A DNA stretch of 55,693 nucleotides from NCBI RefSeq assembly GCF_903933125.1, contig NZ_CAIZIZ010000307.1, positions 1 through 55,693 on the forward strand, read 5' to 3'. This DNA comes from an uncultured Lamprocystis sp. (GTDB taxonomy: Bacteria > Pseudomonadota > Gammaproteobacteria > Chromatiales > Chromatiaceae). Both the position numbers and the translations under genes were made by a program. Positions 809 to 55,693 of this stretch are shown here, in pieces. The notes under the pieces are model-generated. The model did not search any database. It was given only the letters and a program-made list of their open reading frames with translations, and was not told the origin of the DNA. Positions within the stretch are counted from its first letter, which is position 1. Each line of letters begins with the position of its first letter.

Positions 809-943
809 GGCCTTGATCATCGCTCCGGCCGTAGGGTGGACAAGCGCTAGCGCAGTCCACCGAATCCCGCGCCGCGGCAGGTGGACTGTGCGCTGCGCTT
901 GTCCATCCTACGAGGCCGCGTGGCCGGAACCGTGATCAAGGCC
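809..943. mobile_element. MITE-like element, copy A (core type 1)
   Basis: Left arm 809-830 and right arm 922-943 are inverted copies (19 of 22 positions match) of the shared terminal sequence GGCCTTGATCATCGTTCCGG plus CC. The core is a palindrome built from GTAGGGTGGACAAGCGC and its inverse. The flanks CGAGCCCC (801-808) and GCAGCCCC (944-951) match at 6 of 8 positions, like a decayed target duplication. See copies B to I for the family. Confidence 0.7.
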
Positions 944-1074
944 GCAGCCCCCTGTCAGTACCCCCTAAACACTCTGGAAAGCACTCAAGACACCTTTTCC
1001 ACAATATTGTTTTTTAAATTATTCTTGATACCACGACGACCCAAGCGCCAGTCGGTTTATGCCGACCCGCTCGG

Positions 1075-1104
1075 GCGTTATGAGGCAAGATTGCCTCATA
1101 ACGC
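1075..1104. repeat. Perfect 14-bp inverted repeat
   Basis: GCGTTATGAGGCAA (1075-1088), a GA loop, then its exact reverse complement (1091-1104). There is no T-tract, so it is not a standard terminator. The ends (GTTATG / CATAAC) resemble recombination half-sites of some attC sites, which fits the cassette-like region that follows, but this is weak. Confidence 0.5.
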
Positions 1105-1332
1105 ACGAACGGTGCGGTGAGGAACTGCGCGCAATGACTTGACAAACCGAAAAAACTTTGATGCAATCCCAAAAAGGCTCCGATCTATGGGGTAGTTCGT
1201 CCGCCGACATCTCGTTAGGCATTGCTATCAATTTGAAACGACGCTGGTTCGGTCCCATTCGGGTTGCCCCGAATATTCACTGGTAAACCCAACCGATTGC
1301 ATGAATGATAACTCCACCCACGAGCAGAACCC

Positions 1333-1743
1333 ATGAAAAATGCTATCGTCTCTACTCTTGTTCTGTCCTCAATCCTGAGCACCGCTCCGGGCAAAGCGGA
1401 TAGCTTCCAGGACTACGCACCTCTTTATAGTAATGTCAATTCAGCCAATCCTGGTATGGAGATCATAATACCCCGATACAGCCGCAGCAGTGCTGATCCA
1501 TTAGGTAACCCCAAGAGTTATACCTTCCGGTTCGATGTTTACCCTGCCGGGCGGCCTAATCGTCTTTACGGTAGCGCGAGCCGCACGTTTGTCTTTCCAA
1601 ATTCGTGCGTCAACCCACAACCTTATCGGACATGGTCAGAAGATGATAAAGTGGTCGCCTTGCCAAATTCGTCGCGCAGGGTTCTGGCGTTCACGATTAA
1701 TCGAAGCTGTAAGTACATCAATATATTCGCTATGAGCGCTTAA
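1333..1743 (+). CDS. Secreted hypothetical protein
   Basis: 136 residues starting MKNAIVSTLVLSSILSTAPGKA, which is a plausible Sec signal peptide with cleavage after GKA. The mature part is small and rich in Ser, Asn, Tyr and Arg, with two Cys late in the chain (NSCVNP and RSCKY) that could pair in the periplasm. Base composition is clearly lower in GC than the chromosomal genes around it, suggesting transfer. I do not recognise the family. It lies in a possible integron cassette. A second short frame downstream (1772-2095) may be a separate gene or the rest of a once longer secreted protein. Confidence 0.55.
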   Translation: MKNAIVSTLVLSSILSTAPGKADSFQDYAPLYSNVNSANPGMEIIIPRYSRSSADPLGNPKSYTFRFDVYPAGRPNRLYGSASRTFVFPNSCVNPQPYRTWSEDDKVVALPNSSRRVLAFTINRSCKYINIFAMSA

Positions 1744-1771
1744 TTATTTATCTTTCTTTTAAATCAATGCT

Positions 1772-2095
1772 TTGCAATTATTGGCGCCTACAAATATTTC
1801 ACTTGAAGTACTTACCGAGATCACCGGGGGAGCCATCAAACGCAGCTACGGTATCTTTATCTATTCGGCCGTCCTCGCAAACAGTTTAGGCACAGTCTGG
1901 AGTAGGACTTTCACATCCGTCGATGATCTCTACTTGGATTCCTTTCAAGGGGTAGATACCAATGGCGATGACAAGGCCGATGAGATCATGGTTGTTATGA
2001 GCTATGCCACGAGCACTGGATACAACAAGCGGTTTGTTATACTGAATAAGACAAATGGCGAAACCATTTCCGACAGCAGCTATCCGAGCTCTTAG
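1772..2095 (+). CDS. Hypothetical protein with FG-GAP/VCBS-like segment
   Basis: 107 residues from a TTG codon; the start is uncertain because no clear ribosome site is seen. The segment VDTNGDDKADEIMVV followed by beta-rich RFVILNKTNGE is the Asp-rich calcium-binding pattern of FG-GAP/VCBS or EF-hand-like repeats found in secreted proteins. The chain is too short for a full propeller, so it is either a fragment or a cassette-borne small protein. It has the same low GC as the gene before it but lies in a different frame, separated by 28 bp. Confidence 0.35.
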   Translation: MQLLAPTNISLEVLTEITGGAIKRSYGIFIYSAVLANSLGTVWSRTFTSVDDLYLDSFQGVDTNGDDKADEIMVVMSYATSTGYNKRFVILNKTNGETISDSSYPSS

Positions 2096-2146
2096 CAGGG
2101 AATGAGGCAATAGGGGCAAGCGCAATTATTGGGCAATAGGGCCGTC

Positions 2147-2172
2147 GGTTGGGGTGAGGAACGAACCCCAAC
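2147..2172. repeat. Half copy of GGTTGGGGTGAGGAACGAACC palindrome
   Basis: A single copy of the arm found as full inverted pairs at 20301-20374 and 43381-43457. Here only one hairpin (GGTTGGGGT ... ACCCCAAC) is present, between the last short frame and the split attC-like site. Confidence 0.5.
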
Positions 2173-2241
2173 ATTTCCAAGCTCAGACCTCGTTGTGGAA
2201 TAAATGTAAGAAAAAGCCTAACAAGCCGCCTTATTAGAGGA

Positions 2242-2337
2242 TGGGGTCAGGTCTTGCAATCAAGCATCTGGGATACGATGCAAGTATTCATGATTACAAG
2301 ACCTGACCCTCTACATTTTGTGACCCTCTACATTTTG
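2242..2337. repeat. REPIN-like element 1
   Basis: Inverted arms GGGTCAGGTCTTGCAATC (from 2244) and GATTACAAGACCTGACCC (to 2309) enclose a short spacer with GGATACGATG. This is the same sequence as elements at 2475-2577 and 3039-3157. The right end unit TGACCCTCTACATTTTG is present twice in tandem. REP/REPIN sequences of this kind are moved by RAYT (Y1-type) transposases; none is in the window. Confidence 0.7.
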
Positions 2338-2449
2338 CTATGCCCGATAAGACACCCCAAGAGCATACGGCCGTCTCCGGCCCGCCCGGACGCCTCCATG
2401 CTCCACACCTCCACCCGTGCCCACGCTGTTTCAGGGCTCATCGCCTGAG

Positions 2450-2577
2450 GGGAGGATGGGGTCATGAGGGGAGGATGGGGTCAGGTCTTGCAATCAAGCA
2501 TCGGGGATACGATGTAAGTATGCATGACTACAAGACCTGACCCTCTACACTCTTGATTACAAGACCTGACCCTCTAC
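2450..2577. repeat. REPIN-like element 2 with duplicated ends
   Basis: The left end unit GAGGATGGGGTCA occurs twice (about 2452 and 2471). The full arm pair spans about 2478-2545, and an additional right arm GATTACAAGACCTGACCCTC follows to 2577. It ends a few bases before the attC-like right half at 2589-2609. Confidence 0.7.
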
Positions 2578-2613
2578 GCTCTACATTCCGCTCAGCTCAA
2601 CCGTTAGGCGGCC

Positions 2614-2955
2614 ATGAACGCTCTTGCGCAGCTTCAAGACTGGTACCTCTCCCAGTGCAACGGTGACTGGGAGCACACTTACGGTGTTTCTATAGGTACC
2701 TTGGACAATCCGGGATGGTCGCTTGTGGTTGAACTCACTGACTCCAACCTCGACGGTCGCTCCTTCGCACCTGTCAGTCACGGCGTAGGCGCAGACTCTG
2801 TCGAAGACGACCCGGACTGGCTCACTTGCGAGGTCAAGAGCAACAGATTTGTTGCACACGGAGGCCCGCTAAAGCTCGACGAAATGATCATGGTTTTCGT
2901 CAAGTGGGCCGACAGCTGCCCGCCTAACGCAGGGGATGGGGCACCATTTAGCTGA
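2614..2955 (+). CDS. Imm53 family immunity protein
   Basis: 113 residues. The N-terminal half (LQDWYLSQCNGDWEHTYG then IGTLDNPGW) is the hallmark of the Imm53 family, cytoplasmic immunity proteins that protect against polymorphic or contact-dependent toxins. The C-terminal pattern FVKWADSC fits the family's end. No toxin gene is adjacent, so this is an orphan immunity gene. The ATG follows an attC-like GTTAGGC by 4 bp, and GCCTAAC lies inside the 3' end of the frame, the usual arrangement of a cassette gene. The last dozen residues (after SCPP) read into repeat sequence, so the original stop was probably lost when a repeat cut the attC site. Confidence 0.8.
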   Translation: MNALAQLQDWYLSQCNGDWEHTYGVSIGTLDNPGWSLVVELTDSNLDGRSFAPVSHGVGADSVEDDPDWLTCEVKSNRFVAHGGPLKLDEMIMVFVKWADSCPPNAGDGAPFS

Positions 2956-2994
2956 CCCCGGTGCGGGCACGACATAATCCCTCGTGCCCGAACA

Positions 2995-3157
2995 CGTGGG
3001 GAAATGGGGTCATGGGGAAATGGGGTCACATGGGGAAATGGGGTCAGGTCTTGCAATCAAGCATCCGGGATACGATGCAAGTATGCATGATTACAAGACC
3101 TGACCCTCTACATTTGTTCTTGACCCTCTACATTTGTTCTGACCCTCTACATTTGTT
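2995..3157. repeat. REPIN-like element 3 with triplicated ends
   Basis: The left end unit GGGGAAATGGGGTCA is repeated three times (about 2998-3045). The inverted arm pair runs about 3041-3106. The right unit GACCCTCTACATTTGTTCT is repeated three times (to 3157). Its right boundary falls inside the start of a DUF5615-like gene on the minus strand, which it truncates. Confidence 0.7.
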
Positions 3158-3178
3158 CTCGTCTGCGACCAGGTCCAT
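3158..3178 (-). pseudogene. DUF5615-type toxin, first codons only
   Basis: Downstream of the DUF433 gene, after a 12-bp gap, an ATG at 3178 encodes MDLVADE and, reading into the repeat, N. This matches the N-terminal strand of DUF5615 (PIN-like) toxins, whose genes normally follow DUF433 genes. The frame then enters REPIN element 3 and is nonsense. Seven native codons are very little evidence alone; the neighbouring DUF433 gene is what makes the call plausible. Confidence 0.45.
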
Positions 3179-3190
3179 GGGGAGACACCC

Positions 3191-3418
3191 TCAAGCCGCG
3201 TGGGCGGACACCGGATAGAGAACATCGGCGTGGAGGACCTGGGCCGCGAAGCCCAGGGCAGCGCGAATATCCTCCGGCGCCAGCCGCGGATTGGCCTCCA
3301 GGATCTGCTCCTGGGATTCCCCAGCCGCGAGCCGTTCCAAGATGGACTCCACCGTGACGCGGGTGCCGACGATGGTTGGTTTACCCATCATGATGTCGGG
3401 ATTCGAGACGATTCGCAT
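3191..3418 (-). CDS. DUF433 family antitoxin
   Basis: 75 residues (MRIVSNPDIMMGKPTIVGTR...), the compact DUF433 fold: an N-terminal substrate-like strand with GKPTIVGTR followed by a winged-helix-like segment with VESILERLAAGES and EANPRLAPEDIRAAL. DUF433 proteins are antitoxins or DNA-binding partners of DUF5615/PIN-like toxins. The start at 3418 is chosen because AGGAGG lies 9 bp upstream; a longer frame from 3451 would overlap that ribosome site. The usual downstream toxin is reduced to seven codons by a repeat insertion, so the antitoxin is orphaned. Confidence 0.85.
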   Translation of the reverse strand: MRIVSNPDIMMGKPTIVGTRVTVESILERLAAGESQEQILEANPRLAPEDIRAALGFAAQVLHADVLYPVSAHAA

Positions 3419-3451
3419 CGGTGTGTACCTCCTGCAAGGGGCCTTAGTCAT

Positions 3452-3929
3452 CCAGCAGACGCTCGGTCAGCGGTGCCGACCGCGACGAACGAACGCCGCG
3501 ACGAACCTGAACTATACGACCGCAAGGTAATTCCGGGGACAATTTACTTCATTCAAGAGACTCCGAGTCGGCCTTGATCAGGGTTCCGGCCACGCGGGAT
3601 CGTACAAGCGCAGGGCAGTCCACCAGCGACGGCGCGGGATTCGGTAAACTGCGCTGTCGCTTGTTCAGCCTGCGGCCGGAACGACGCAGACCGACACGCT
3701 ACTCAGCCATCATGGCCAGCACGTCCGCCAACTCGCGCACGGTCAGGGGCGCCGACCCGCGGGCGTCGTCGGCCGGACTCGGTCAATCGGGGCGCTTCGG
3801 CTTGGGCAGTGCGATGAGCTGGTTGCGCGGGCCACTGCGAACCGATGGCGAAGTTGATGACGGCATCGACAGGGCGCCGCTGCCCAAGCCGATCGTCTCC
3901 AGGAACACCTGCGCAACATTGGCCAGGAA
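3452..3929. other. Gene-poor stretch before the sensor kinase
   Basis: It contains an AATTCCGGGGACAATTTAC motif near 3530 (resembling another RAYT-associated repeat end) and MITE copy B. On the minus strand, 3704-3745 reads LTVRELADVLAMMAE then stop, which could be a C-terminal remnant of an unknown gene. I cannot support a gene here. Confidence 0.4.
3570..3695. mobile_element. MITE-like element, copy B (degenerate, core type 1)
   Basis: The left arm 3570-3591 matches the family consensus well. The core is a decayed version of the GTGGACAAGCGC palindrome of copy A. The right arm (from 3674, GGCCGGAACGACG) has lost its outer half. No target duplication is recognisable. Confidence 0.55.
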
Positions 3930-6105: not shown

Positions 6106-6208
6106 TTTTTAGTACCTTCTCGGACTGAGAATAAAAGGGGTTAAGAGTTTTCAGGTGTTCAACGTAACCCATCCCTGGGCCGGCTCCCTAGGGCAGCGGG
6201 CCCGATCG

Positions 6209-6332
6209 GGCGTTGATCGGAATCCCGGCCAGCGGCGTGCGTAGTCAGGGCTTCCAGCCCTGACGGTGTCAGGCCAGGATGGCCTGACTACGCACCCGGC
6301 GAGCCCAAGTGGCCGGAATCTTGATCAAGGCC
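6209..6332. mobile_element. MITE-like element, copy C (core type 2)
   Basis: Arms 6209-6230 and 6311-6332. The core is a double hairpin: GCGTAGTCAGGG, a CTTCCAGCCCTGAC loop-back, GTCAGGCCAGGATGGCCTGAC and CTACGC. Flanks CCCGATCG (6201-6208) and CCCGATCG (6332-6339) form a 7-8 bp direct repeat. The same core in reverse orientation is in copy E. It lies between two minus-strand secreted-protein genes. Confidence 0.8.
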
Positions 6333-6343
6333 CCGATCGCGCG

Positions 6344-6640: not shown

Positions 6641-6766
6641 TGCCTCATCGTTGACGGCCCACGGCGAGCGTTCCGGCCCGACCGTCCCAGGTGAGTGCTC
6701 AGTATATAAGAACTTACTAAATTAGCAATAGATAAATTCCGTTCGGCCGCTCAAGAAGGACCAAAG

Positions 6767-7339: not shown

Positions 7340-7408
7340 GTTTGGCTGCCCTCAACCCACCGCCGTTCGGCCGTTGCAACAGACAAATTGAAATCACGAG
7401 GTGACGCG

Positions 7409-9096: not shown

Positions 9097-10494
<1,398 letters not shown>

Positions 10495-11295: not shown

Positions 11296-13758
11296 ATGCT
11301 CCGCCGTGTTCTTACCGTTGTCCTGGCGATCCTGCTGGCCCTGGGCCTGGGTGTCGCCGGGGTTCTCCTGTGGATCACCAAACGCGCGGAGCCGGCCTAT
11401 GCCGGTGAGGTCAGGGTCGCCGGGCTGACGGCTCCGGTGCGCGTGCGCTGGGGACCGCACGCGGTGCCGACCATCCAGGCGGATTCGCTGCCCGATCTGC
11501 TGTTCGGCCAGGGATTCGTGGTGGCCAGTGAGCGGATGTGGCAGATGGATCTGATGCGCCGGCTCGCCGACGGGCGCCTGGCGGAGGTCTTCGGGGCGGA
11601 CGCGCTGGACGCGGACCGGTTCTTCCGCACCTTGGGTCTCAATGCCGCTGCCCGCCGCGCCTATGCCGAATTGGACGCACCCGAACGGGCCATGCTCGCG
11701 GCCTATGCGGCCGGGGTCAACGCCTACCGAGCGCAGGCGCTGGAGCGGCTGCCGGTCGAGTATCTGATCGCCGGCTTCGAGCCGGACCCCTGGCGGCCGG
11801 AGGACAGTCTGCTGGTCGGCGCCTACATGGCCTGGACCCAATCGTTCAACTTCAAGGAGGAGTTGACCTTTCTGCGGATGGCGGCACGTCTCGGTGCGGC
11901 CCGGGCGCGCGAACTCTTCCCCACCGATGAGGGAGTGCCAGCCCCGCCGGTGCCGCCCGAACTGCTGGAGCGGCCTGGTGACCTGGGCGGCGCCACCGCC
12001 GCGACGGCGGCCGCGCTGGCCGGCCTCCTGGACCTGCCCGCGCGTTTCGGCCTGCCGACACCCAGTCCGGCCAGCAACGCCTGGGTGGTCACCGGACCGC
12101 GCACCGCCGATGGTGCGGCCCTGCTCGCCAACGACCCCCACCTACCCCCATCGGTGCCTGGGACCTGGTATGAACTGGAGTTGTACGGACCCGATCTGCA
12201 TGTCGCCGGTCTGGCGCTGCCCGGGGTGCCGCTGGTGTTGATCGGCCACAACGCCGATCTGGCCTGGGGACTCACCAGCGCCATCGCCGATACCCAGGAT
12301 CTGTTCCTCGAACGGCCCACCGCCGACGGCACTCAGGTGGAACGGGCCGGGCGTGCGCCCGAGGCCATCACCACCCGGGTGCAGCGCATCATGGTCAAGG
12401 ATGCGCCGCCGGTGGACCTGGTCGTGCGCAGCACCCGTCATGGGGTCATCCTGAACGATCTGCTCGCGCCTGTCCCGGACGCCGCGGACGGGGCACGGAG
12501 CGCATTGCAGCCGTCCGTCGCCGGCCCCTATCTGATCGCGCTGAGTCAGGTCACTGACCCGCCGGACCGCAGCTTCGCCGCGCTCGTCGGTTTGAACCGG
12601 GCGCGCACCCTGGCCGAGGCCCGCCGCGCCGCGCTGGGCTTTTACGCGGTCGCGCAGAATCTGATGCTCGCCCACCGCGATGGGGACATCGCCTGGCAGG
12701 TGACCGGACTCCTGCCGCAGCGCCGCAAAGGGTCCGGGCTCTTCCCCGCGCCCGGCTGGATCGCGGATTATGGATGGGACGGCACGGTGGCGCCCTGGCG
12801 CAACCCAGGGCAGATCGATCCGGCCGGGGCCGCGCTGATCACGGCCAATAACCGCACGATCCCGGTCGACCACCCGGTCAATGTCGGTCATTCATGGATG
12901 GCGCCCTACCGCGCCCAGCGCATCACGCAGCGCCTCAATGAATCCGGACCCTTGACCCCCGCGGCGATGGCCGCCATCCAGACCGACCGCCTGAGTCGCC
13001 AGGCCCTGTTGACACAGCAAGCGCTGCGGCGCGATGAATCGGCGCTGCGCGCCGCGGACCCCGCGGCCTGGGTGATCGCGGAGTCTGACCTGCTCGGCTG
13101 GGACGGTGTCATGGACGGATCGAGCCGTGCCGCGGCCTTCTATGCCCTGCTGGAACCGGCGCTCTGGCGGGCGCTCTATGGCGACGAGTTGGGTGACGCG
13201 GACCTGGCGGTCCTGATGTCGCTGGCGAACCCGACTTATCATTCGTTGCAGGAAACCCTGCATACCGGTGAGTCAAGCTTCTGGGACGACGTGACCACAC
13301 CGGAAGCCGAGACGCCGGCCCACATCTGGGCGCGCGCCCTGCGGACGGCCGCGGCCGATCTGGCGGCGGCCCTGCCCCGGACGCGTGACCAGCGCCTCGA
13401 CCGGCTGCGGACCCTGACCCTGCCCCATGCCTTCCACCAGCAGCCGCTGCTCGGTTGGCTGTTCGATGTCGGACCCATCGGGGTCGGCGGCGCGGCCGAT
13501 ACGGTGGACCTGATGCAGAGCGCGCCCGCTGATCCGCGTCGCGTTCTGATCGCACCGTCGATGCGCGTGGTTCAGGTCCCGGGCAACTGGCCGCAGACCC
13601 GCGGCACCCTGCCGCTTGGTCAGTCCGGTCATCCGCTGTCGCGCTACCGCACCGATCAGCTCGACGATTGGCTGCACGGCGGTTCCCACACCTGGCCCTG
13701 GCACGGCCCCACGACCGAGGGTACACAGGGGCTGCTGGTGTTGCGGCCGCTGCCGTGA
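11296..13758 (+). CDS. Penicillin acylase family protein (Ntn hydrolase)
   Basis: 820 residues from ATG 11296 (GGAG 7 bp upstream); a longer frame from 11248 lacks support. An N-terminal hydrophobic helix (about 3-26) exports or anchors it in the periplasm. The alpha part has VRWGPHAVPTIQADS and FGQGFVVASERMWQMDLMRR. The linker is followed by PASNAWVVTGPRTADGAALLANDPHL, where Ser260 is the expected new N-terminal nucleophile after autocleavage. Later marks are ITANNRTIPVDHP (the beta-chain Asn) and YRTDQLDDWLHGGSHTWPW near the end. Family members cleave amide bonds of N-acyl compounds such as acyl-homoserine lactones, beta-lactams or aculeacin-type lipids; the substrate cannot be told from sequence. 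It is monocistronic, divergent from the small membrane peptide gene. Confidence 0.92.
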   Translation: MLRRVLTVVLAILLALGLGVAGVLLWITKRAEPAYAGEVRVAGLTAPVRVRWGPHAVPTIQADSLPDLLFGQGFVVASERMWQMDLMRRLADGRLAEVFGADALDADRFFRTLGLNAAARRAYAELDAPERAMLAAYAAGVNAYRAQALERLPVEYLIAGFEPDPWRPEDSLLVGAYMAWTQSFNFKEELTFLRMAARLGAARARELFPTDEGVPAPPVPPELLERPGDLGGATAATAAALAGLLDLPARFGLPTPSPASNAWVVTGPRTADGAALLANDPHLPPSVPGTWYELELYGPDLHVAGLALPGVPLVLIGHNADLAWGLTSAIADTQDLFLERPTADGTQVERAGRAPEAITTRVQRIMVKDAPPVDLVVRSTRHGVILNDLLAPVPDAADGARSALQPSVAGPYLIALSQVTDPPDRSFAALVGLNRARTLAEARRAALGFYAVAQNLMLAHRDGDIAWQVTGLLPQRRKGSGLFPAPGWIADYGWDGTVAPWRNPGQIDPAGAALITANNRTIPVDHPVNVGHSWMAPYRAQRITQRLNESGPLTPAAMAAIQTDRLSRQALLTQQALRRDESALRAADPAAWVIAESDLLGWDGVMDGSSRAAAFYALLEPALWRALYGDELGDADLAVLMSLANPTYHSLQETLHTGESSFWDDVTTPEAETPAHIWARALRTAAADLAAALPRTRDQRLDRLRTLTLPHAFHQQPLLGWLFDVGPIGVGGAADTVDLMQSAPADPRRVLIAPSMRVVQVPGNWPQTRGTLPLGQSGHPLSRYRTDQLDDWLHGGSHTWPWHGPTTEGTQGLLVLRPLP

Positions 13759-13769
13759 TGCGCTGATGC

Positions 13770-13850
13770 GCCTTGGTCGTAAACCCGGCCATCGCGGGGT
13801 CTGCGCGGTCCTCGGTCCGCACAGCGGACCCTACAGACCCTCAGCTATGC
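13770..13850. mobile_element. MITE-like half element, copy I (core type 4)
   Basis: A left arm GCCTTGGTCGTAAACCCGGCC (13770-13790) lies 11 bp after the acylase stop, followed by GGTCCGCACAGCGGACCCTAC. The inverted GTCCGC arm is reduced (GCGGACC) and the right terminal arm is missing. The same core occurs in copy H at 26640-26695. Confidence 0.45.
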
Positions 13851-14147: not shown

Positions 14148-15185
14148 GTGTTGCACTTCCTGCATTCACTCTTCGCCCCGCCGTCGCGGCAGATCGGCGC
14201 GGTCGCATCCGCCGCCATCAGCACGGCGGTGGATCGCGTGATTGACGGAACAGATCCGCGACTGCGCGCGGTCCCCCACTACCAGCGCATCCTGGCACGA
14301 CCGGTGGAAAGCGCGCTTGAGTATATCGCCGCGAACGCGGACATTTTTCTGCCGGCCATCACCTTCGATCGGCGCCGTTTTTCGGCCGACCCGCGGCTGC
14401 GCGCCATGTTCGTCGGGCCCAATCACCTGCTGGAGGTCCTGTCCTCGAGCCCCGAGGTCCGCGGCTATCTCAAGGCGAACAGGGGTACCACCCCGCCGGA
14501 ACTGTTCGCCGCGCTGCGCGTGGAGCGCACCGAAAAGCGGGTCTTCGGCATGGCCCTGGATGGTGGGCGGGTGCTGCGCGACGTGCCGCAGACCACGGTG
14601 AATTTCCATAATCATCGGGTCGCCTTTCCGGCCACGTCCGAGGCCGAAACCGTGCTGCAAGTCCAGGCGCGCGCCTTCGATTATCTGATCGAAGTCGCCA
14701 AGACGCACCTGGATGCCATGCGCGCGCGCCGCGAGCAATTGGAGCGCCAGTACCGGCAACTCTGCCAGGGCCGGTCGGCGGTCCCCGGTCGGGCCGGGCG
14801 GGGCGCCTTGAGCCTGACCGCGGGCATCATCCACAGCCCCCATGACCCGGCCGATGCGCGTCGGCTCCAGAGCATGGAGGTCGAACTCGGACGGCTGCGC
14901 GCCCTGGCCGGCACGCTCGGCGAGCAACTCGCTCTGGTCGCCAACATCGTGCGTGAGCCGCACGGGTACCTGCGCTTCGAGCGCGTCGGCATGACCCTGG
15001 ATCGGATGAACACCAAGGTCTCCAAAAACCTGCGCAAATCCGCCGATGACGTGACCTTCAACGAGATGCTGATCGACGGGCAGCGCCGCATTACGCTCGA
15101 ACTGATCCGTTTCCCGAGCAGCGAATTGCTGCCGCCGACCGACCTCGTGGCGAACGCCGAGCGGGCCTTGCAGCGGGCGATCTGA
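14148..15185 (+). CDS. Conserved-looking hypothetical protein
   Basis: 345 residues from GTG 14148, chosen because AGAGGA lies 8 bp upstream; the frame is open to 13881 but the extra 89 residues look non-coding. The protein is soluble and Arg/Leu-rich. Middle part: FDRRRFSADPRLRAMFVGPNH and EVRGYLKANRG. A helical segment (about 185-230, LDAMRARREQLERQYRQL) looks like a coiled coil. Near the C-terminus: NTKVSKNLRKSADDVTFNEM, then ITLELIRFPSSELLPP. I do not recognise a domain. Upstream lies a repeat-rich leader, downstream MITE copy D nested in a palindrome, so it is probably transcribed alone. Confidence 0.6.
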   Translation: MLHFLHSLFAPPSRQIGAVASAAISTAVDRVIDGTDPRLRAVPHYQRILARPVESALEYIAANADIFLPAITFDRRRFSADPRLRAMFVGPNHLLEVLSSSPEVRGYLKANRGTTPPELFAALRVERTEKRVFGMALDGGRVLRDVPQTTVNFHNHRVAFPATSEAETVLQVQARAFDYLIEVAKTHLDAMRARREQLERQYRQLCQGRSAVPGRAGRGALSLTAGIIHSPHDPADARRLQSMEVELGRLRALAGTLGEQLALVANIVREPHGYLRFERVGMTLDRMNTKVSKNLRKSADDVTFNEMLIDGQRRITLELIRFPSSELLPPTDLVANAERALQRAI

Positions 15186-15221
15186 TACAAAACGAGTCCA
15201 AGGCAGTATAGGAGTCGCGTC

Positions 15222-15511
15222 GCGACTCCGTGGGAGCGGCCTCCGGCCGCGACTGAGCCGGGCGCATTGCCGTGGGGTCGGCCATGATCGCCGTTGCGGC
15301 CAAAGCGACCACTCGGATTTATCCACAGATGTCACAGATGTTCACAGATGAGGAAAAACATCTGTTTTCATCTGTGTTCATCTGTGACATCTGTGGATGA
15401 CCTTTCCGGCCCTGAGCCACGGCGAAAGCTGGCCGGAACGATGACCAAGGCCGTGGCGTCAGCAAGCACACCGGCGCCGCATCGCGGCCGGAGGCCGCTC
15501 CCACGAGTGGA
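15222..15511. repeat. Palindrome split by MITE copy D
   Basis: Arms GACTCCGTGGGAGCGGCC (about 15224) plus TCCGGCCGCGA and TCGCGGCCGGAGGCCGCTCC (from 15483) plus CACGAG are inverted copies of one repeat. MITE copy D (15280-15452) sits in the loop, so one repeat was inserted into another. Confidence 0.65.
15280..15452. mobile_element. MITE-like element, copy D (core type 3)
   Basis: Arms 15280-15301 (GGCCATGATCGCCGTTGCGG) and 15431-15452. Core 15322-15397 is a perfect-ended palindrome made of short CACAGATG units (TCCACAGATGTCACAGATG ... and inverse), the same core as in copy F. Flanks GTGGGGTC (15272-15279) and GTGGCGTC (15453-15460) match at 7 of 8 positions. Confidence 0.8.
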
Positions 15512-21276: not shown

Positions 21277-22916
21277 GCCGGTCCGCGACCCGCCGGATGG
21301 GGTCGCGCTTGAGCGACTCGGCGAGCAGCCCGATCGAGAGCGCTGCGCCGCGGCGAGCAGCGCATCGAGCCGGGTGCGGTCCGGCCGGTCGGTGCCGGAC
21401 CGGCCGGGCGCGGGCGCGATCAATGACTCCAGGTTGTCCAGGATCAGCAGGGTGGGCACCCGCGCGAGCGCGGCGGCGGCGCGTTCGTCGAGCAGCGACT
21501 CGCCCAGGACCTGCGCCAGGCTGCTGACCGCCCAACCCACCGGGTCGACGCCCTGAAAGTCCGCATAGCTCACCAGACAGACCCGCTCGAACAGGCCGGT
21601 GGCGCGCAGCCAGCGGCCGGCCTCCTGCGCCAGCGTGGTCTTGCCCTGACCACCGAACCCGCAGACGACCAGCCGGCGGGTGCCGGCGACATAGGCGCGC
21701 TCGATCTCCCAGAGTTCGCGCGAGCGGCCCCAAAAGCCGGTGGGCTGGACCGGGGGCAGGTTGTCGGCGGCGGGCACCGCGGCCGGGTCCGGCCGGGCGT
21801 CGGCGGGCGCGGCGGGCTGGGTGAGCAGCGCCGCGTCGTCGCCGGTGCGGTAGAGGGTGGGCAGAAACCAGTCCTGGAGTTTGAGTTCCGTCCAGCCGGT
21901 GCCGCGTCTGCGCTCCCCGCGGACCGGGTGCGCATAGAGTTCGCGCCGGGCATTCTCCAGCGCCGTGCCGAGCGGGCGGCCGCGGCCCAGTTGGCCTTGA
22001 TCGTCGTTCCGGCCACTTGGGCGCGCCGGGTGCGTAGTCAGGCCATCCTGGCCTGACACTGTCAGGGCTGGAAGCCCTGACTACGCATACCGCCGGCCGG
22101 GATTACGATCAAGGCCGCCCAGTTCACGGTACAGATGGCCGAAGAGCGCGCGGGTGGTCTCGACCAGCACCGAATGGGTCATGGCCAGCACATTGGGGAT
22201 GCCGGCGCGGGTGAGCCGGGCGGCGACACTGCCCAAGGGGTCATCGCCGCCGAGCTTGGCGGACTGGCAGGCCGAGAGAATCACCAGCGGGATCTGCTGC
22301 TGGTTGAGCATGTCGCCCAGCAGTGAGGCCGGGACCAGATGCTCTTTGCCGTCGTCGTGCTCGAAGAGCAGATAACCCTGGTGGGCGCCGGTCGCACCGT
22401 CGCCGGCCCGCGCCATGGCGGCGTGCAGCCGCGCGGGGAGCGCGCCGGCGGCCCGCTCGCCCAGGTGTCCGTCCGGGTCGTAAACGCCGTGACCGTCGAA
22501 ATGCGCGGGTTGGCGAGAAAGAGCCAGGTCCCCTCGGGGTGGCGCAGCAGTTCCCAGGGCTGGGCCAGGACGGACGGGTGACCGCTGTCGATGCTGAGCA
22601 GCCGGCCGGGCTCGGCAGCGCGTGCGAACCGCTGATAGAGATCGGCGGCTTCATAGCCTTGCTTGAAGACCGCATCGAACAGCGTGCGGCCCCAGTGCTC
22701 CAGCCGCAGCGCGATCCCCGCGGCCCGGCGGTCGTCGAGCTCGGTGGCGTAGTGGACGGGATAAAGTTCCAGATACCAGTGCAGTTCGTCCTGGTCGGCC
22801 TCGGCGATGGGGCTCTCGAACGGCAGCGGTGCGGTGCGCTGGGGTCGGCCGTTGCCGATCAGCTCGACCTCGACGTGCGCGGGGTCCGGGAAGCTCAGGC
22901 ACAGTTCCATGGTCAT
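21277..22916 (-). pseudogene. CHAT-domain protein fused to NB-ARC-like ATPase, broken
   Basis: Read from ATG 22916 (GGGGAG 8 bp upstream). The N-terminal part ends WLFLANPRI; the frame must then shift at 22492-22504 to continue HFDGHGVYDPDG (CHAT catalytic His), then VILSACQSAKLGGDDPLGS (catalytic Cys) to LYRELG. MITE copy E (21993-22116) interrupts here with a stop. The frame continues RGRPLGTALENARRELY, LQDWFLPTLYR, GFWGRSRELWEIERAY, Walker A GFGGQGKTT, Walker B LLILDNLESLI. A further frameshift occurs near 21340 (GLLAESLKRDPIRRVADRLE), and the 3' end is lost at the Rpn fragment. CHAT proteases with NTPase domains act in caspase-like defence or signalling. The gene is dead. Confidence 0.8.
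21993..22116. mobile_element. MITE-like element, copy E (core type 2), inside CHAT gene
   Basis: Arms 21993-22014 (GGCCTTGATCGTCGTTCCGG plus CC) and 22095-22116. The core is the reverse complement of copy C's double hairpin. It is flanked by a perfect 8-bp direct repeat GCCCAGTT (21985-21992 and 22117-22124). Deleting the 124 bp and one repeat restores LYREL-GRGRPLG in frame, so this is a clean insertion. Confidence 0.9.
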
Positions 22917-26591: not shown

Positions 26592-26695
26592 GACCTTGGT
26601 CATCACAACCCGGCCGCTTCGCCCTCTGAGCGAGCGTTGGTCCGCACAGCGGGCCCTACGATCGCGATCTTACGTAGGGTCCGCTGTGCGGACCG
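26592..26695. mobile_element. MITE-like half element, copy H (core type 4), in TRAP operon
   Basis: A left arm related to GGCCTTGATCATCG (here ACCTTGGTCATCACAACCCG plus GCC) is followed by GGTCCGCACAGCGGGCCCTAC, an ATCGCGAT centre and the inverse ending GTGCGGACC (about 26640-26695). The right terminal arm is missing. The stable hairpin lies in the dctP-dctQ gap and could lower dctQM expression relative to dctP. Confidence 0.5.
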
Positions 26696-26710
26696 ATGAC
26701 GGAAATCGCC

Positions 26711-35725: not shown

Positions 35726-35750
35726 CGCCGCAACGCGCGGGACGCCCCGC

Positions 35751-35912
35751 GGCCTTGATCATCGTTCCAGCCAGCGGCCGCCGAGACCCTGGGGCGGAAA
35801 GCTGATCCACAGATGCTCACAGATGAACACAGATATTTCTTCATCTGTGAACATCTGTGACATCTGTGGATAATTCCCAATGGTCGCTTTGGCCGGAACA
35901 GTGATCATGGCC
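35751..35912. mobile_element. MITE-like element, copy F (core type 3), at argG stop
   Basis: Arms 35751-35772 (GGCCTTGATCATCGTTCCAG plus CC) and 35891-35912. Core 35806-35870 is the CACAGATG palindrome seen in copy D. Perfect 8-bp direct repeats CGCCCCGC flank it (35743-35750 and 35913-35920). The right arm contains the TGA stop codon of argG. Confidence 0.9.
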
Positions 35913-37131
35913 CGCCCCGCTTACGCCCGGCCACCCGCAGCCGCAGTGCATTGAGCCGGATGAACCCGGTGGCATCACTTTGATCGTAAGCCCCGGCATC
36001 CTCCTCGAAGGTGGCGATTGATGCGTCGAACAGGCTGTCGCTGGCGGAGCGCCGGCCGACCACCATGACGTTGCCCTTGTAGAGCTTCAGGCGCACCTCG
36101 CCGTTGACCACGCTTTGAGTCTGGTCGATGGCCGCCTGCATCATCAGTCGCTCCGGACTGAACCAGAACCCGTTATAGACCAGGCTGGCGTAGCGGGGCA
36201 TCAACTCGTCTTTCAAATGCGCCGCCTCCCGATCCAGGGTCAGTGACTCCATGGCGCGATGCGCCTTGAGCAGGATGGTACCGCCGGGCGTCTCGTAGCA
36301 GCCGCGCGACTTCATGCCGACAAAGCGGTTCTCAACGATATCATCGCGGCCGATGCCGTTCTCGCCGCCGATGCGATTGAGCTCGGCCAGCAGCGTGGCC
36401 GGGCTCATCGCGTGGCCGTCCACCGCCACACAGTCGCCTCCCGCGAAGGTCAGGGTGATCTCGCGCGGCGTGTTCTGGGCATCCTCCGGGGCCAGGGTCC
36501 AGCGCCACATCGGCTTGCCGGGCTCGACCCAGGGGTCTTCCAGGTCATAGCCCTCGTAGGAGATATGCAGCAGATTGGCATCCATCGAGTAGGGCGACTT
36601 GGTGCCGTCACGTTTCATCTCGACCGGGATCTGGTGCTCCTCGGCATAGGCGAGGAGCTTCTCGCGTGAGAGCAGGTCCCACTCCCGCCAGGGGGCGATG
36701 ATCTGGATGTCGGGCTTGAGCGCATACGCGGTCAGCTCGAAACGCACCTGATCGTTCCCCTTGCCGGTCGCCCCGTGGGAAATGGCGTCGGCCCCGGTCG
36801 CGATGGCAATCTCCACCAACCGCTTGGCGATCAGCGGACGGGCAATCGAGGTGCCGAGCTTGTACTCGCCCTCGTAGAGCGCGTTGGCGCGCAGCATGGG
36901 AAACACGAAATCACCGACGAACTCCTCGCGCAGATCGTCGATATAGATCTCCTTGACTCCGGCGGCTGTCGCCTTGGCGCGCGCCGGCTCCAGTTCCTCC
37001 CCCTGCCCGATATCGGCGGTGAAAGTCACCACCTCACAACCGTAGACATCCTGCAGCCACCGCAGAATGACCGAGGTATCCAGCCCTCCGGAGTATGCCA
37101 GCACCACCTTGTTGATCTTGCCCTTAACCAT
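35905..37131 (-). CDS. argG: Argininosuccinate synthase
   Basis: 408 residues from ATG 37131 (GAGAGGT 7 bp upstream; a longer frame to 37302 lacks support). ATP-dependent ligase of citrulline and aspartate in arginine synthesis. ATP-binding P-loop [74 protein letters not shown], and [17 protein letters not shown]. The last residues (AGRKRGGP) and the stop codon are created by MITE copy F; the lost native C-terminus was probably only a few residues beyond the family's usual end. Confidence 0.97.
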
Positions 37132-48605: not shown

Positions 48606-48694
48606 GTAGGAGCGGGCCATGCCCGCGATCTACCCGATTTACACACTTTTCGGACGCCTAGCGATCTTCTGTCGCGGGCATGGCCCGCTCCTAC
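48606..48694. repeat. GTAGGAGCGGGCCATGCCCG palindrome
   Basis: Arms GTAGGAGCGGGCCATGCCCG (from 48606) and CGGGCATGGCCCGCTCCTAC (to 48694) enclose a 45-bp spacer. The same arm type is the core of MITE copy G at the right window edge. Confidence 0.75.
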
Positions 48695-48944: not shown

Positions 48945-48960
48945 GAGTCATAAGCATTCT

Positions 48961-50478: not shown

Positions 50479-50495
50479 GGTGTCCTCCGGTCAGG

Positions 50496-51623: not shown

Positions 51624-51746
51624 GGAAGACTCCGGGGGTGTCGTGATTAGGCGACAGAAATCGCCTTGTAACGAGTCAAGAATTAAGTTAAACCCAAACG
51701 ACAACGAGTGTTTAGTGTATTTCTGACTCGTTCAATTGTCTTTCGG

Positions 51747-52397: not shown

Positions 52398-53085
52398 GAC
52401 AGGCATTCCGGTCGAGGTCGTAGTCCAGGCCCAAGGTTTAGGCAAGCATGTTAACGGTCCCAGCGGGGATCTGACCATCCTGAAAGGTCTCGATCTTCAG
52501 ATCCAGGCCGGCGAGGCGGTGGCCATCCTGGGAGCCTCCGGCTCCGGCAAGTCCACGCTGCTTGGGCTATTGGCCGGACTCGACGGCGCCACCGCGGGCG
52601 ACGTCTGGCTGTGCGGCCAGCGGCTCGACGGGCTGACCGAAGACGGGCGCGCAGCCTTGCGGGCCGGGCGCGTCGGTTTCGTGTTCCAGAGTTTCCAACT
52701 GCTGCCCACGCTCACCGCCCGCGAGAACGTCCTGCTGCCGTTGGAACTGACCGGCACCCGCGACGCCGAGACGCGTGCCGACGAGGCCCTCACGCGCGTC
52801 GGGCTCGCCCCGCGCGCCGGCCACTACCCGCGCCAGCTCTCGGGTGGGGAACAGCAGCGGGTGGCCATCGCCCGCGCCTATGCCCCACGCCCGGTCGTCT
52901 TGTTCGCGGACGAACCGACCGGCAACCTGGACCAGGCGACCGGCGAACACATCATCGACCTGCTGCTGGACCTGCGCGCCGAGGCCGGCGCGGCGCTGGT
53001 ACTGGTCACCCATGACCCGGCGCTGGCCGAGCGCTGCGACCGCCGGCTGCGGATGCGCGATGGTGCCTTGGAGCGTATCGCATGA
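52396..53085 (+). CDS. ybbA: ABC transporter ATP-binding protein YbbA
   Basis: 229 residues from ATG 52396; no later start is in frame near the conserved N-terminus. Walker A AVAILGASGSGKSTLLGLLAG, Q-loop FVFQSFQLLPTLTARENVLLP, signature QLSGGEQQRVAIARA, Walker B VVLFADEPTGNLDQATG, and H-loop LVLVTHD. LolD/MacB-like MetN type. It works with the downstream permease, which it overlaps by 4 bp. The role of the YbbAP system is not settled; the family handles hydrophobic compounds at the inner membrane. Confidence 0.93.
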   Translation: MTGIPVEVVVQAQGLGKHVNGPSGDLTILKGLDLQIQAGEAVAILGASGSGKSTLLGLLAGLDGATAGDVWLCGQRLDGLTEDGRAALRAGRVGFVFQSFQLLPTLTARENVLLPLELTGTRDAETRADEALTRVGLAPRAGHYPRQLSGGEQQRVAIARAYAPRPVVLFADEPTGNLDQATGEHIIDLLLDLRAEAGAALVLVTHDPALAERCDRRLRMRDGALERIA

Positions 53086-55607
53086 CAATGGGAGCGCTCC
53101 TGAGGTTCCCCACCTGGCGCATCAGCCTGCGTCTGCTCCGTCGGGATTGGCGCAGCGGCGAACTCTATCTGCTGGCCGCCGCGCTGATCCTGACCGTGGC
53201 CGCCGTGACCGCCGTCGGGTTCTTCACCGACCGCATCGAGTCCGCCATGGTCCGTCAGGGCGGCGAGTTACTCGCCGCGGATCTGGCCGTCGACGGGTCA
53301 TCCCGGCCGCCGGACGCGTACCTCAACCAGGCGGTCAGCCTGGGGTTGGAAAGTGCCCGCACCCTGGAGTTCCCGAGCGTGGTGATGGGCGCCGCCGGTG
53401 CCCAGTTGGTGCAGGTCAAGGTGGTGGACGCGGCTTATCCGCTGCGCGGCCGGCTGCGCCTGCGTGACGGCGTCACCGATCCGGAACGCACCGTCGAACA
53501 GGGGCCGCCGGCCGGTGAGGTCTGGGTGGAGGCCCGTCTGCTGCGGCTGCTGGAGGCCCGGATCGCTGATCCGGTCGGGCTGGGAGAGACCCGGTTGCGG
53601 ATCGGCGCCATCCTGAGTTACGAGCCGGACCGGGGCGGCAACCTCGTCAATCTGGCCCCCCGGGTGCTGATGAACGACGCCGATCTGTCGGCGACCGGGC
53701 TGGTGAGCGAGGCCAGCCGGGTGCGGCACCGCCTGTTGTTGGCCGGTGAGGTCGATGCGGTCGCCGCTTTTTCCGCTTGGCTCAAGCCCCGTTTGCCGGC
53801 CAATCTCACGCTGGTCGACGGGCGCACCGCCCGGCCCGAGTTCGAATCCGCATTGGATCGTGCCTCGCGCTTTCTGCACCTCGCCACCCTGGTTACCCTG
53901 CTGGTGGCGGGCAGCGCCATCGCGCTCGCCAGCCGCCGTCTGGTGGAGCGCCAGATCGATGCGGTGGCGATCATGCGCTGTCTGGGCGCGCCGCAGCATC
54001 TGCTGCTGCGGGTTTTCCTGCTGCGGCTGGTCCTGTTCGGGCTGGTCGCCAGCCTGCTGGGGTCGCTGGTCGGCTGGGTCGGGCAGCTTGGGTTGGTCGC
54101 GGCCCTGGCCGACTGGTTCGGGACGGATCTGCCGGCGGCCTCGCTGACGCCGGTGGTGGTGGGCGTGCTCACCGGTCTGATCGCCTTGCTGGGGTTCGCC
54201 GTGCCGCCCTTGCTGCAACTTACCAGGGTATCACCGTTGCGCGCGTTGCGGCGCGATCTGGGCACCCCGCGCGCATCGGCCGCGGCGGCGGTGCTGGGGG
54301 CCTTGCTGGCGCTGGCGCTATTGGTGTTCTGGCAGGCGGGTGACGCGGTCCTGGCCGGTCAGCTCCTGGCCGGGGTGGCGCTGACCCTGGTCACGCTGAT
54401 CCTGGCCGTTTTGGGTCTGGTGAAGGCGGCGAGCGGTCTGGCGGGTCGGACCCGCGGGGTCTGGCGGCTCGGGCTCGCGGCGCTCACCCGGCGGCCGACC
54501 TTTGCGGTGCTGCAGATCGCCGGATTCGGGTTGGGCATCCTGGCGCTGCTCCTGCTCGCGGTGGTGCGGGTGGACCTGCTCGAAACCTGGCGGCAGGGCC
54601 TGCCCGAGGGCGCGCCCAATCAGTTCCTGATCAATATTCAACCCCAGGAGGTCGAGCCGTTGCGCGCCTTCCTGGCGGAGCAGGGCATTGCCCAGGCGGA
54701 ACTTTACCCGATGATTCGGGGGCGGCTGATCCGCATCGGCGAGCGTCCGGTGAACCCGTCCGATTACCCCAACCCGCGTGCCGAAAGCCTGGTTGCCCGC
54801 GAGTTCAACCTGAGTTTCAGCGATGCGCCCGCCTTGGCGGGCCGGACGGATAACCGTCTGGTCGCGGGCCAGTGGTGGGCGGCGGGGGAGACCGCGCCCC
54901 AGTTCTCGCTGGAGCAGGGACTGGCCGAGACGCTGGGGATTCAACTTGGCGACCGGCTGACCTTCTTCGTGTCCGGTCACGAGGTCAGCGCCCCGGTGAC
55001 CAGTCTGCGCGAAGTCCGCTGGGACAGCTTCAACGTCAACTTCTTCGTGGTCTCCCCGCCCGCCTTGCTCGGGGTCGAACCGGCCACCTACATCACCAGT
55101 TTCCACCTGTCCGCGGACCGGGAGGCGGTGATCCCCGCGCTGATCCAACGTTTCCCCAGCGTCACCCTGCTGGACGTGGATGCCCTGCTGACCCAGGTCC
55201 GCGCGGTGGTCGACCGCGGGGTCCTGGCGGTGGAGTACGTGTTCCTGTTCACCCTGGCCGCCGGGGTGCTGGTCATGTTTGCCGGCATCCAGGCGAGTCT
55301 GGCCGAGCGCCGCGCCGAGCACGGCATCCTGCGCACCCTGGGCGCCGGCCGCAACGCCCTGCTCGGCAGTCTCGCGGTGGAGTTCACGGCCGCCGGGCTC
55401 CTGGCCGGGTTTCTCGCGTCCATCTTCGCCGAAGTCACCGGCTGGCTGCTGGCGGAGCAGTTGTTCGGGCTGCAATTCAGCTTCAACCCGCTGCTGTGGG
55501 TCACCGGTGTGCTGGGTTCCGGGCTGCTGATCGGTCTGGCCGGCACCCTGGCCACCTGGCCGCTGCTGATCCGGCCGCCATTGCAGACATTGCGCCGGGC
55601 GGCGTGA
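53082..55607 (+). CDS. ybbP: ABC transporter permease YbbP (FtsX-like)
   Basis: 841 residues, FtsX-like double arrangement. First helix ELYLLAAALILTVAAVTAVGFF, then a periplasmic domain (about 40-250), helices with ATLVTLLVAGSAIALASRRLVE and RQIDAVAIMRCLGAPQHLLLRVFLLRLVLFG, more helices near 340-470, a second periplasmic domain, and final FtsX part (VEYVFLFTLAAGVLVMFAGIQASLAERRAEHGILRTLGAGRNALL). It pairs with YbbA. Its start overlaps the ybbA stop (ATGA). It ends 17 bp before MITE copy G. Confidence 0.94.
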   Translation: MTMGALLRFPTWRISLRLLRRDWRSGELYLLAAALILTVAAVTAVGFFTDRIESAMVRQGGELLAADLAVDGSSRPPDAYLNQAVSLGLESARTLEFPSVVMGAAGAQLVQVKVVDAAYPLRGRLRLRDGVTDPERTVEQGPPAGEVWVEARLLRLLEARIADPVGLGETRLRIGAILSYEPDRGGNLVNLAPRVLMNDADLSATGLVSEASRVRHRLLLAGEVDAVAAFSAWLKPRLPANLTLVDGRTARPEFESALDRASRFLHLATLVTLLVAGSAIALASRRLVERQIDAVAIMRCLGAPQHLLLRVFLLRLVLFGLVASLLGSLVGWVGQLGLVAALADWFGTDLPAASLTPVVVGVLTGLIALLGFAVPPLLQLTRVSPLRALRRDLGTPRASAAAAVLGALLALALLVFWQAGDAVLAGQLLAGVALTLVTLILAVLGLVKAASGLAGRTRGVWRLGLAALTRRPTFAVLQIAGFGLGILALLLLAVVRVDLLETWRQGLPEGAPNQFLINIQPQEVEPLRAFLAEQGIAQAELYPMIRGRLIRIGERPVNPSDYPNPRAESLVAREFNLSFSDAPALAGRTDNRLVAGQWWAAGETAPQFSLEQGLAETLGIQLGDRLTFFVSGHEVSAPVTSLREVRWDSFNVNFFVVSPPALLGVEPATYITSFHLSADREAVIPALIQRFPSVTLLDVDALLTQVRAVVDRGVLAVEYVFLFTLAAGVLVMFAGIQASLAERRAEHGILRTLGAGRNALLGSLAVEFTAAGLLAGFLASIFAEVTGWLLAEQLFGLQFSFNPLLWVTGVLGSGLLIGLAGTLATWPLLIRPPLQTLRRAA

Positions 55608-55624
55608 GTTCAGGGCGTACGGCG

Positions 55625-55693
55625 GGCCTTGATCATCAATCCGGCCAGATCCAAGCCGACACTCGTCGCGGCCGCGGGCCGCTCCTACCGTAG
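55625..55693. mobile_element. MITE-like element, copy G (core type 5), cut by window edge
   Basis: Left arm 55625-55646 (GGCCTTGATCATCAATCCGG plus CC), then a GTCGCGGCCGCGGGCCGCTCC-like core related to the GTAGGAGC palindromes at 48606 and 48835. The right half lies outside the window. Confidence 0.6.

What the first reader, a model, noticed from the sequence alone, without database searches (positions are those of the whole stretch)
809..55693. Modular MITE family: one set of terminal arms, at least five unrelated palindromic cores
Copies A (809-943), C (6209-6332), D (15280-15452), E (21993-22116) and F (35751-35912) are complete; B, G, H and I are partial. All share about 22-bp inverted arms (GGCCTTGATCATCGTTCCGG plus CC). 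The cores differ: GTGGACAAGCGC type (A,B), GTAGTCAGGG double hairpin (C,E), CACAGATG palindrome (D,F), GGTCCGCACAGCGG type (H,I), GTAGGAGCGGGCC type (G). Flanking 8-bp direct repeats: E GCCCAGTT and F CGCCCCGC perfect, C 7-8 bp, D 7/8, A 6/8. Several core types also occur alone in this window (for example 48606-48694), so the arms seem to mobilise, or be grafted onto, different hairpin sequences. I know of no described family with swapped cores of this kind.
Basis: seen in the sequence. Interest (0 to 1): 0.85.

Follow-up and report, generated by a model that had tools for sequence, protein, structure and literature searches.

The report
Mobile DNA ends carrying swapped hairpins
In a group of purple sulfur bacteria, many tiny jumping DNA pieces share the same two ends but carry different sequences, mostly hairpins, in the middle; the ends match those of a full-length jumping gene of an apparently unnamed family, and most of the hairpins belong to a second, unrelated kind of mobile repeat that seems to travel as cargo.

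Summary
In detail: arms pair, carry 8-bp (7-9) target duplications and bound unrelated cores, in this genome and its genus. Copies E and F each have a precise empty site in a sister species. IS1595 is not the donor. The arms are the ends of a 1.8-1.9 kb insertion sequence encoding a ~566-aa HTH + DUF6399 protein with an invariant D-D-E triad; ten full-length elements in eight genomes have exact 8-9 bp duplications, and no NCBIfam IS model fits. Of 35 duplication-supported short elements in two genomes of the genus, 27 carry REP motifs, 4 other repeats, 4 neither. Six core types flank RAYT genes. In another genus the same arms move a core without a hairpin, so the hairpin is cargo, not required. 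Core exchange is visible three times: two mosaics with a shared duplication using one end of each of two elements, and one orthologous site with different cores in two species. New variant of a known kind; whether REPINs were inserted or captured is unresolved.

The parts
809..943 (.). Copy A: arms 809-830 and 922-943, R4 REP pair as core (831-847 and 895-911)
   Evidence: duplication 6/8
3570..3684 (.). Copy B: left arm 3570-3591, decayed R4-like core, truncated right arm from 3674
6209..6332 (.). Copy C: arms plus R1 REPIN (6241-6264, 6268-6291)
   Evidence: 7-bp repeat CCGATCG offset by one
13769..13834 (+). Partial copy: left arm (13769-13790) and one R3 REP (13814-13834), no right arm found
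15280..15452 (.). Copy D: arms plus CACAGATG palindrome
   Evidence: duplication 7/8
15230..15504 (.). R7/R12 REP halves (15230-15253 and 15481-15504) on both sides of copy D: a MITE lying between two REP halves
21985..22124 (.). Copy E 21993-22116 with R1 REPIN; duplications GCCCAGTT at 21985-21992 and 22117-22124; precise empty site in G168:C24
35743..35920 (.). Copy F 35751-35912 with CACAGATG core; duplications CGCCCCGC at 35743-35750 and 35913-35920; precise empty site in G142:C130, diverged filled site in G168
26639..26694 (.). R3 REP pair without arms
48606..48694 (.). Solo R7-like REP pair (4-5 mismatches to the motif) without arms
55625..55693 (+). Left arm followed by an R7-type core, cut by the contig end
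753..774 (-). Isolated arm-like sequence (18/22), probably a decayed copy; not the end of the adjacent IS1595 remnant

Best explanation
The arms are the terminal inverted repeats of a DUF6399 insertion sequence; the short elements are non-autonomous derivatives (MITEs) moved in trans by its transposase, which acts at the arms and leaves an 8-bp (sometimes 9-bp) target duplication whatever lies between. [Shown: shared ends, duplications, two empty sites. Inferred: catalysis by the DUF6399 protein, from its invariant D155-D209-E482 and HTH.] Cores change because elements of this family land in or beside one another; since all ends are alike, the next transposition can use one end of each, or two direct arm copies can recombine. 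[Three end products shown; path and frequency inferred.] Most cores are REP/REPIN repeats of RAYT systems of the genus, which thereby travel on a second transposase as cargo. [Shown: cores match REPs beside RAYT genes, and composites carry the duplication. Not shown: whether RAYT put the REPIN into a MITE or the arms captured it.]
For: Full-length element G107:C1:310888-312804 bounded by the arms with a 9-bp duplication; ten full-length elements in eight genomes with exact 8-9 bp duplications. DUF6399 in 13 of 13 aligned homologues, triad invariant. DUF6399 fragments beside arms in the own genome (C176, C215, C225). Outside the genus 7 of 10 arm-rich genomes (>=20 matches, a cut chosen) hold a homologue against 29 of 176 others, p=0.0005 (counted by me). 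Duplication-supported pairs: G000 23 of 43, G107 12 of 18, against 1.4% of random placements. REP motif in 19 of 23 (G000; 17 are R1) and 8 of 12 (G107), D or T repeat in 3 and 1 more; any listed motif in 1.8% of random 140-bp segments. RAYT flanked on both sides: R1 L282, R2 L180, R4 L178, R5 L176, R7/R12 L174 and L280, R8 L169 and L284. Empty sites for E and F. Mosaics L185 and L008; core exchange L028 vs L293. G002: none of 12 supported elements has a listed motif; its main core folds no better than shuffles (z 0.3) while three REP cores give z -5.6 to -9.6.
Against: The transposase is assigned by genetics only: AlphaFold mean pLDDT 54, no transposase among solved structures matched, integrase-core model rve in 1 of 13 homologues at E 0.05. 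Of 36 DUF6399 loci, nine have an arm pair without a matching duplication, two end at a contig edge and 15 show no arm pair (many truncated; the Acidobacteriota homologue L155 has no arm). No intact DUF6399 gene is assembled in the own genome. G127 (285 arms) and arm-rich G057, G074 and G185 show no homologue. No MITE with the same inner flanks but without its REPIN was convincingly found. In the orthologous exchange the outer pair has no matching duplication. D and T cores have no RAYT link.
Confidence: 0.78

Rival explanations
1. REPINs are inserted into pre-existing MITEs by their own RAYTs (for example into the loop of the extruded arm palindrome), so each composite is the product of two transposases acting in turn.
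For: 27 of 35 supported elements carry a REP motif although any listed motif is in only 1.8% of random segments. Different REPs were acquired (six RAYT-linked core classes), R2, R5 and R8 in two or more flank settings by eye. REP arrays also sit inside other REPs (R6 in R2, L028; R12 in R5, L084, L016, L093). A 37-bp arm-arm palindrome served as a target in L010 (length by my arithmetic).
Against: No empty counterpart with matching flanks; no orthologous MITE seen with and without its REPIN; by eye, inner flanks are class-specific rather than shared between classes (output partly cut). Many of the 27 are one lineage (R1, 17).
Confidence: 0.35
2. The arms captured REP-containing DNA: two elements inserted on either side of a REP, or template switching during gap repair filled an excised element with REP sequence, and the new arm-bounded segment was then amplified.
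For: Alternative-end transposition is directly seen (L185, L008). Class-specific inner flanks. Cores without listed motifs exist (L100 752-874, G002).
Against: Supported elements lie within 100 bp of a listed repeat in only 4 of 39 cases, random 2.6%: too weak a preference to explain by itself that 27 of 35 cores are REPs.
Confidence: 0.45
3. The elements are remnants of IS1595-type (or IS66/IS256-type) insertion sequences, as the first reader suggested checking.
For: 8-bp duplications; an IS1595 transposase fragment ends about 230 bp from copy A.
Against: Intact relatives of that transposase end in CATGCCTATCCGGTTGCCTC (L035, L036), and the window remnant carries such an end at 581-596. IS66/IS256 ends were not searched.
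Confidence: 0.02
4. Arms and cores are host regulatory or structural repeats, not mobile.
For: REP cores form strong hairpins, and REPs have proposed cellular roles (PMC3733652, abstract passage).
Against: Precise empty sites and target duplications.
Confidence: 0.01

Closest known systems
Bacterial MITEs (Nezha, RUP, NEMIS/Correia, QMITEs; review PMC10969869, only passages found by search were seen)
   Same: Short, non-coding, terminal inverted repeats, target duplications, moved in trans by an IS with the same ends
   Different: One arm set with many unrelated cores, most of them REP/REPIN repeats; donor is a DUF6399 IS. That named MITEs have one core each is recall plus one figure legend seen.
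[quoted passage not shown] PMC4133298, abstract and outline read; PMC13367494, listing only)
   Same: Non-autonomous ends that mobilise different intervening DNA, giving mosaics
   Different: TIMEs are Tn3-derived, duplicate 5-6 bp and gain plasmid segments or genes; here cores are short repeats and hybrids use one end of each element
REPINs and RAYTs (PMC3116915, PMC3733652, passages read; PMC2817692, PMC3686654, listing only)
   Same: GTAG/GGAG-type palindromes in inverted pairs, with the same REP on both sides of RAYT genes
   Different: Here many REPINs sit inside DDE-type terminal repeats and move with them
Thiomargarita 'MITEtron' (MITE in a group I intron; PMC4853749, passages read)
   Same: A MITE combined with another kind of mobile element in a sulfur bacterium
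   Different: Intron host, no REPIN, no shared arms with many cores in the passages seen
SINE V-domain riding the MER6 DNA transposon (PMC6887750, search listing only)
   Same: One repeat family amplified as cargo of an unrelated DNA transposon
   Different: Eukaryotic; a single cargo in the abstract start seen

Membership tests
MITE | Short element bounded by terminal inverted repeats | tested here: met
MITE | Target-site duplication of fixed length | tested here: met
   8 bp (7-9): 49 simple pairs; 49 of 83 pairs pass (G000 23/43, G107 12/18, G002 12/15, other 2/7) against 1.4% of random placements
MITE | Precise empty site in a relative | tested here: met
   E in G168, F in G142; the site of L094 was looked at too and was not informative
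MITE | Autonomous IS with the same ends | tested here: met
MITE | Movement by that IS's transposase | not testable with these tools
   needs a transposition assay
REP/REPIN (cores R1-R8, R12) | GTAG/GGAG-type palindromes in inverted pairs, many copies | tested here: met
   by sequence; R8 and R12 begin with (T)GGGAG rather than GTAG
REP/REPIN (cores R1, R2, R4, R5, R7/R12, R8) | Same repeat flanks a RAYT gene | tested here: met
   57 of 83 Y1_Tnp matches examined. NF047646 over its cut-off for R4, R8 L169 (90 bits) and R7/R12; below it for the R2 and R5 stretches (38 and 41 bits, only the matched stretch scored) and for R1 (66 of 80)
REP/REPIN (core R3) | Same repeat flanks a RAYT gene | tested here: inconclusive
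   only the similar R9 flanks a RAYT on both sides (L179)
REP/REPIN (CACAGATG and AACAAGATG cores) | Same repeat flanks a RAYT gene | tested here: not met
   D motif at none of 57 Y1 loci; T at one (L279), about 1.2 kb away
IS1595-derived MITE | Ends equal those of an IS1595 element | tested here: not met
IS66- or IS256-derived MITE | Ends equal those of such an element in this genome | not tested
   no IS66/IS256 search was run
Known IS family in NCBIfam | Transposase passes a family model cut-off | tested here: not met
   P0002: IS481 18.4 bits against 224; the best E-value of any IS model over 13 homologues is 0.001
DDE transposase superfamily | RNase H-like fold with DDE triad | tested here: inconclusive
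   D155, D209, E482 invariant in 13; strand-strand-strand-helix-strand around the first two acids, but pLDDT 54; rve E 0.05 in 1 of 13

The most novel reading that the evidence does not exclude
A two-engine element: REPINs of several RAYT families are repeatedly put into, and then spread by, a DDE-type MITE platform of a new (DUF6399) IS family, letting a REPIN family multiply where its own RAYT is absent. R1 fits: 206 motif matches in this genome, 17 of 23 clusters in held stretches (chosen for arm hits, so biased) between two arms, and no R1-flanked RAYT among the 16 Y1 matches of this draft genome.
Probability: 0.35. Interest if true: 0.78.

Novelty: new variant of a known kind. Interest (0 to 1): 0.62.

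Why it matters
It points to DUF6399, listed in Pfam as a family of unknown function, as the probable transposase of an unclassified IS family with 8-bp duplications, which would re-annotate those genes. It indicates that in bacteria one repeat class (REPINs, normally tied to a RAYT) can travel as cargo of an unrelated transposon. It also gives natural end products (mosaics with a shared duplication, an orthologous core exchange) for how MITE families with one set of ends acquire unrelated interiors, a question discussed mostly for eukaryotes (recalled).

Tried and rejected
IS1595 as donor: rejected, other ends. The arm-like site at 753-774 as end of the IS1595 remnant: rejected; that remnant's end is at 581-596.

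Cores as deleted IS interiors: not supported; beyond the arm, MITEs share at most about 15-25 bp with IS ends (75-87% identity, G002 copies and a few G107 copies), apart from nested arms, a 22-bp match in L078 and the L185 mosaic.

A core-less MITE for each class: inconclusive (weak matches at 4-5 mismatches only). Insertion preference next to REPs: weak, 4 of 39 against 2.6%. Orthologues of the L094 composite: not informative.

Structure: pLDDT 54, so no fold search was made. No DUF6399 relative in viral contigs or phages. Rfam at gathering thresholds: only two tRNAs in the window.

Limits of the counts. G000 stretches were chosen because they hold arm hits; G107:C1:1-1,200,000 is one contiguous stretch not chosen for arms. 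In one search a left arm with several right arms was given the one with the best duplication. Pairs without an acceptable duplication were left out of the core counts: 20 of 43 G000 (17 of these carry a listed motif), 6 of 18 G107 (4), 3 of 15 G002 (2), 5 of 7 other (1). With a stricter rule (>=7/8, 8/9 or exact 7) 21 G000 and 9 G107 pairs remain, 17 and 6 with REP motifs. Of the 3 supported G107 pairs without a motif, two look by eye like R7 and R5 and one has another palindrome. REP motif names R1-R12, D, T and Q are mine; R3/R9 and R7/R12 resemble each other, and palindromic motifs can count on both strands (in the controls too). L161 and L170 are one locus. In one search the ORFs of L174, L176 and L180 were read on the wrong strand; one search repeats them on the right one.
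Full report
WHAT IS THERE. The five complete copies lie at the stated coordinates. Arms exceed chance by a wide margin: 14 in the window against a mean of 0.08 in 60 shuffles (the matrix was built from these arms), 2105 against 350 control matches in the 7.1 Mb genome at <=3 mismatches. All 8 genomes of the genus hold 200-515 matches at <=1 mismatch with 0-1 control matches; most of the other 186 family genomes hold 10 or fewer, with ten at 20 or more (counted by me).

WHO IT IS. The transposase search in named genomes gave 6 loci: two in Lamprocystis purpurea, one in Ca. Thiodictyon intracellulare, and one each in Desulfobacterales, Magnetococcales and Acidobacteriota MAGs; a Ca. Thiodictyon syntrophicum plasmid also has it. 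So the genus is taken to be Thiodictyon/Lamprocystis, family Chromatiaceae (inference; lineage). G107 has a 6,837,296-base main contig and is probably Ca. T. syntrophicum (inference, size recalled).

THE ARMS. In G107 two arms 1917 bp apart, with a 9-bp duplication, enclose a 566-aa ORF: an N-terminal HTH and a C-terminal DUF6399 (E 7e-55). Homologues occur in 43 of 194 family genomes. Of 36 loci examined, nine are full-length with exact 8-9 bp duplications (L122, L123, L128, L135, L142, L143, L153, L154, L156), one has 7/8 (L132), nine have an arm pair without a matching duplication, two end at a contig edge and 15 show no pair; L221 adds one with 8 bp. These ten lie in eight genomes, are 1.79-1.92 kb long and begin GGC.T.G.TCAT; the ORFs of L153 and L156 are broken. 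D155, D209 and E482 are invariant in 13 homologues. No IS model of NCBIfam fits; 3 of 4 plasmid hits are annotated 'DUF6399 domain-containing protein', the fourth record has no annotation; no paper in the library holds the word DUF6399. The IS1595 fragment in the window is unrelated: relatives end in CATGCCTATCCGG, seen in the window at 581-596.

MOBILITY. Copy F: in G142 the two flanks meet, overlapping by exactly the 8-bp target; G168 has a diverged filled site. Copy E: the flanks meet with an 8-bp overlap in G168. These two composites, with a CACAGATG and an R1 core, therefore moved as units. A-D had no usable flank matches in the stretches compared.

THE CORES. In one contiguous 1.2 Mb of G107 (not chosen for arms), 18 pairs were found, 12 with duplications: 8 carry a REP motif, 1 the T repeat, 3 none. 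In G000 23 of 43 pairs have duplications: 19 carry a REP motif (17 R1, 2 R4), 3 D or T, 1 none. Random 140-bp segments carry any listed motif in 1.8%. In the 1.2 Mb of G107 the clusters lying between two arms are R2 4 of 26, R8 3 of 16, R5 2 of 18, R3 2 of 45 (R9, overlapping R3, 2 of 45), R7 1 of 10, T 1 of 2, and none of R4 (10), R6 (2), R12 (10) or D (1); random positions 0.11%. So most REPs of G107 lie outside arm pairs, though far more lie inside than chance gives. REP motifs flank Y1/RAYT genes on both sides: R1 L282, R2 L180, R4 L178 (1-2 mismatches), R5 L176, R7/R12 L174 and L280, R8 L169 and L284, and R9, seen next to one arm (L066 3638), L179; 12 of 57 examined loci hold three or more copies of one motif against 2% of random 3.2-kb windows. 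The R1 RAYT is unusual: it lies inside a PglX-like ORF. CACAGATG and AACAAGATG cores have no such link. A hairpin is not needed: in G002, of another genus, none of 12 supported copies (8/8 in eight, 7/8 in four) has a listed motif, and its main core folds no better than shuffles (z 0.3; another G002 core, L105, z -2.8), whereas three REP cores give z -5.6, -7.9 and -9.6. L100 752-874 in G000 has a core without a listed motif (z -1.4) and 8/8 duplications.

HOW CORES CHANGE. (i) L185 15809-17766: an IS plus the last 42 bp of an R8 MITE, with duplication CTCGCCAC for the whole 1958 bp; the IS's own right arm was passed over. (ii) L008 1501-1667: the left end of a T-class MITE joined to an R1 MITE, duplication GCCTTTGG for the whole; the R1 copy sits in T sequence. 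(iii) L028 in G000 and L293 in G168 are one orthologous site (left flank, left arm, right half and right flank shared), but between the left arm and TGAYATCC the first has the left half of the R2 palindrome and the second a complete R3 element. The simplest path is insertion of an R3 MITE into the R2 MITE and recombination between the two direct left arms (inference). Nesting is also seen in L010, an R1 MITE with 8/8 duplication inside a 37-bp arm-arm palindrome, and in window copy D, which lies between two REP halves.

WHAT IS NOT SETTLED. Whether RAYTs place REPINs into MITEs or the arms capture them. Class-specific inner flanks (by eye) and the mosaics favour capture; the predominance of REPs and REP-in-REP nesting favour insertion. 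The assignment of transposition to DUF6399 rests on co-occurrence and ends, not on an assay; the model is too weak to judge the fold.

KNOWN OR NEW. MITEs, REPINs and mosaic TIMEs are known kinds; the combination and the IS family were not described in any paper that I saw listed by searches in an open-access library (lists capped). Filed as a new variant of a known kind.

Noticed in passing
L282 223-3174 (G035:C58); also L175 and L285 (G107, G142): A Y1_Tnp domain lies in frame inside a restriction-methylase/PglX-like ORF in three species (Pfam; BREX PglX and RAYT models match L282 below their cut-offs); in L282 it is flanked by R1 REPINs and the frame stays open throughout.
   Followed up: partly
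L254 (G107:C1:4830001-4850000), repeats at 2706-3308 and 11752-12343: By eye a BREX-like cluster (recalled features); CACAGATG palindromes lie between its genes and as a 120-bp in-frame tandem array (4.9 copies) inside a 1130-aa PglX-like ORF. A similar array is in L255.
   Followed up: partly
window 135-596: Truncated IS1595-family transposase (only PF12762 match found in the genome) with its own terminal repeat at 581-596; the sequence before about 135 matches other contigs as a separate repeat.
   Followed up: partly
G079, 3.0 Mb genome: Highest arm density of the genus (362 matches at <=1 mismatch) with only partial DUF6399 matches and no Y1_Tnp match; possibly the ciliate endosymbiont Ca. 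T. intracellulare (inference).
   Followed up: no
G127:C37:3006-3091: R1 REP three times in tandem at 31-bp spacing.
   Followed up: no
L247 about 14943-15336 (G142:C130): An insertion of about 390 bp, relative to the window at 26696, made of repeated R3 REPINs and ending in an arm.
   Followed up: no
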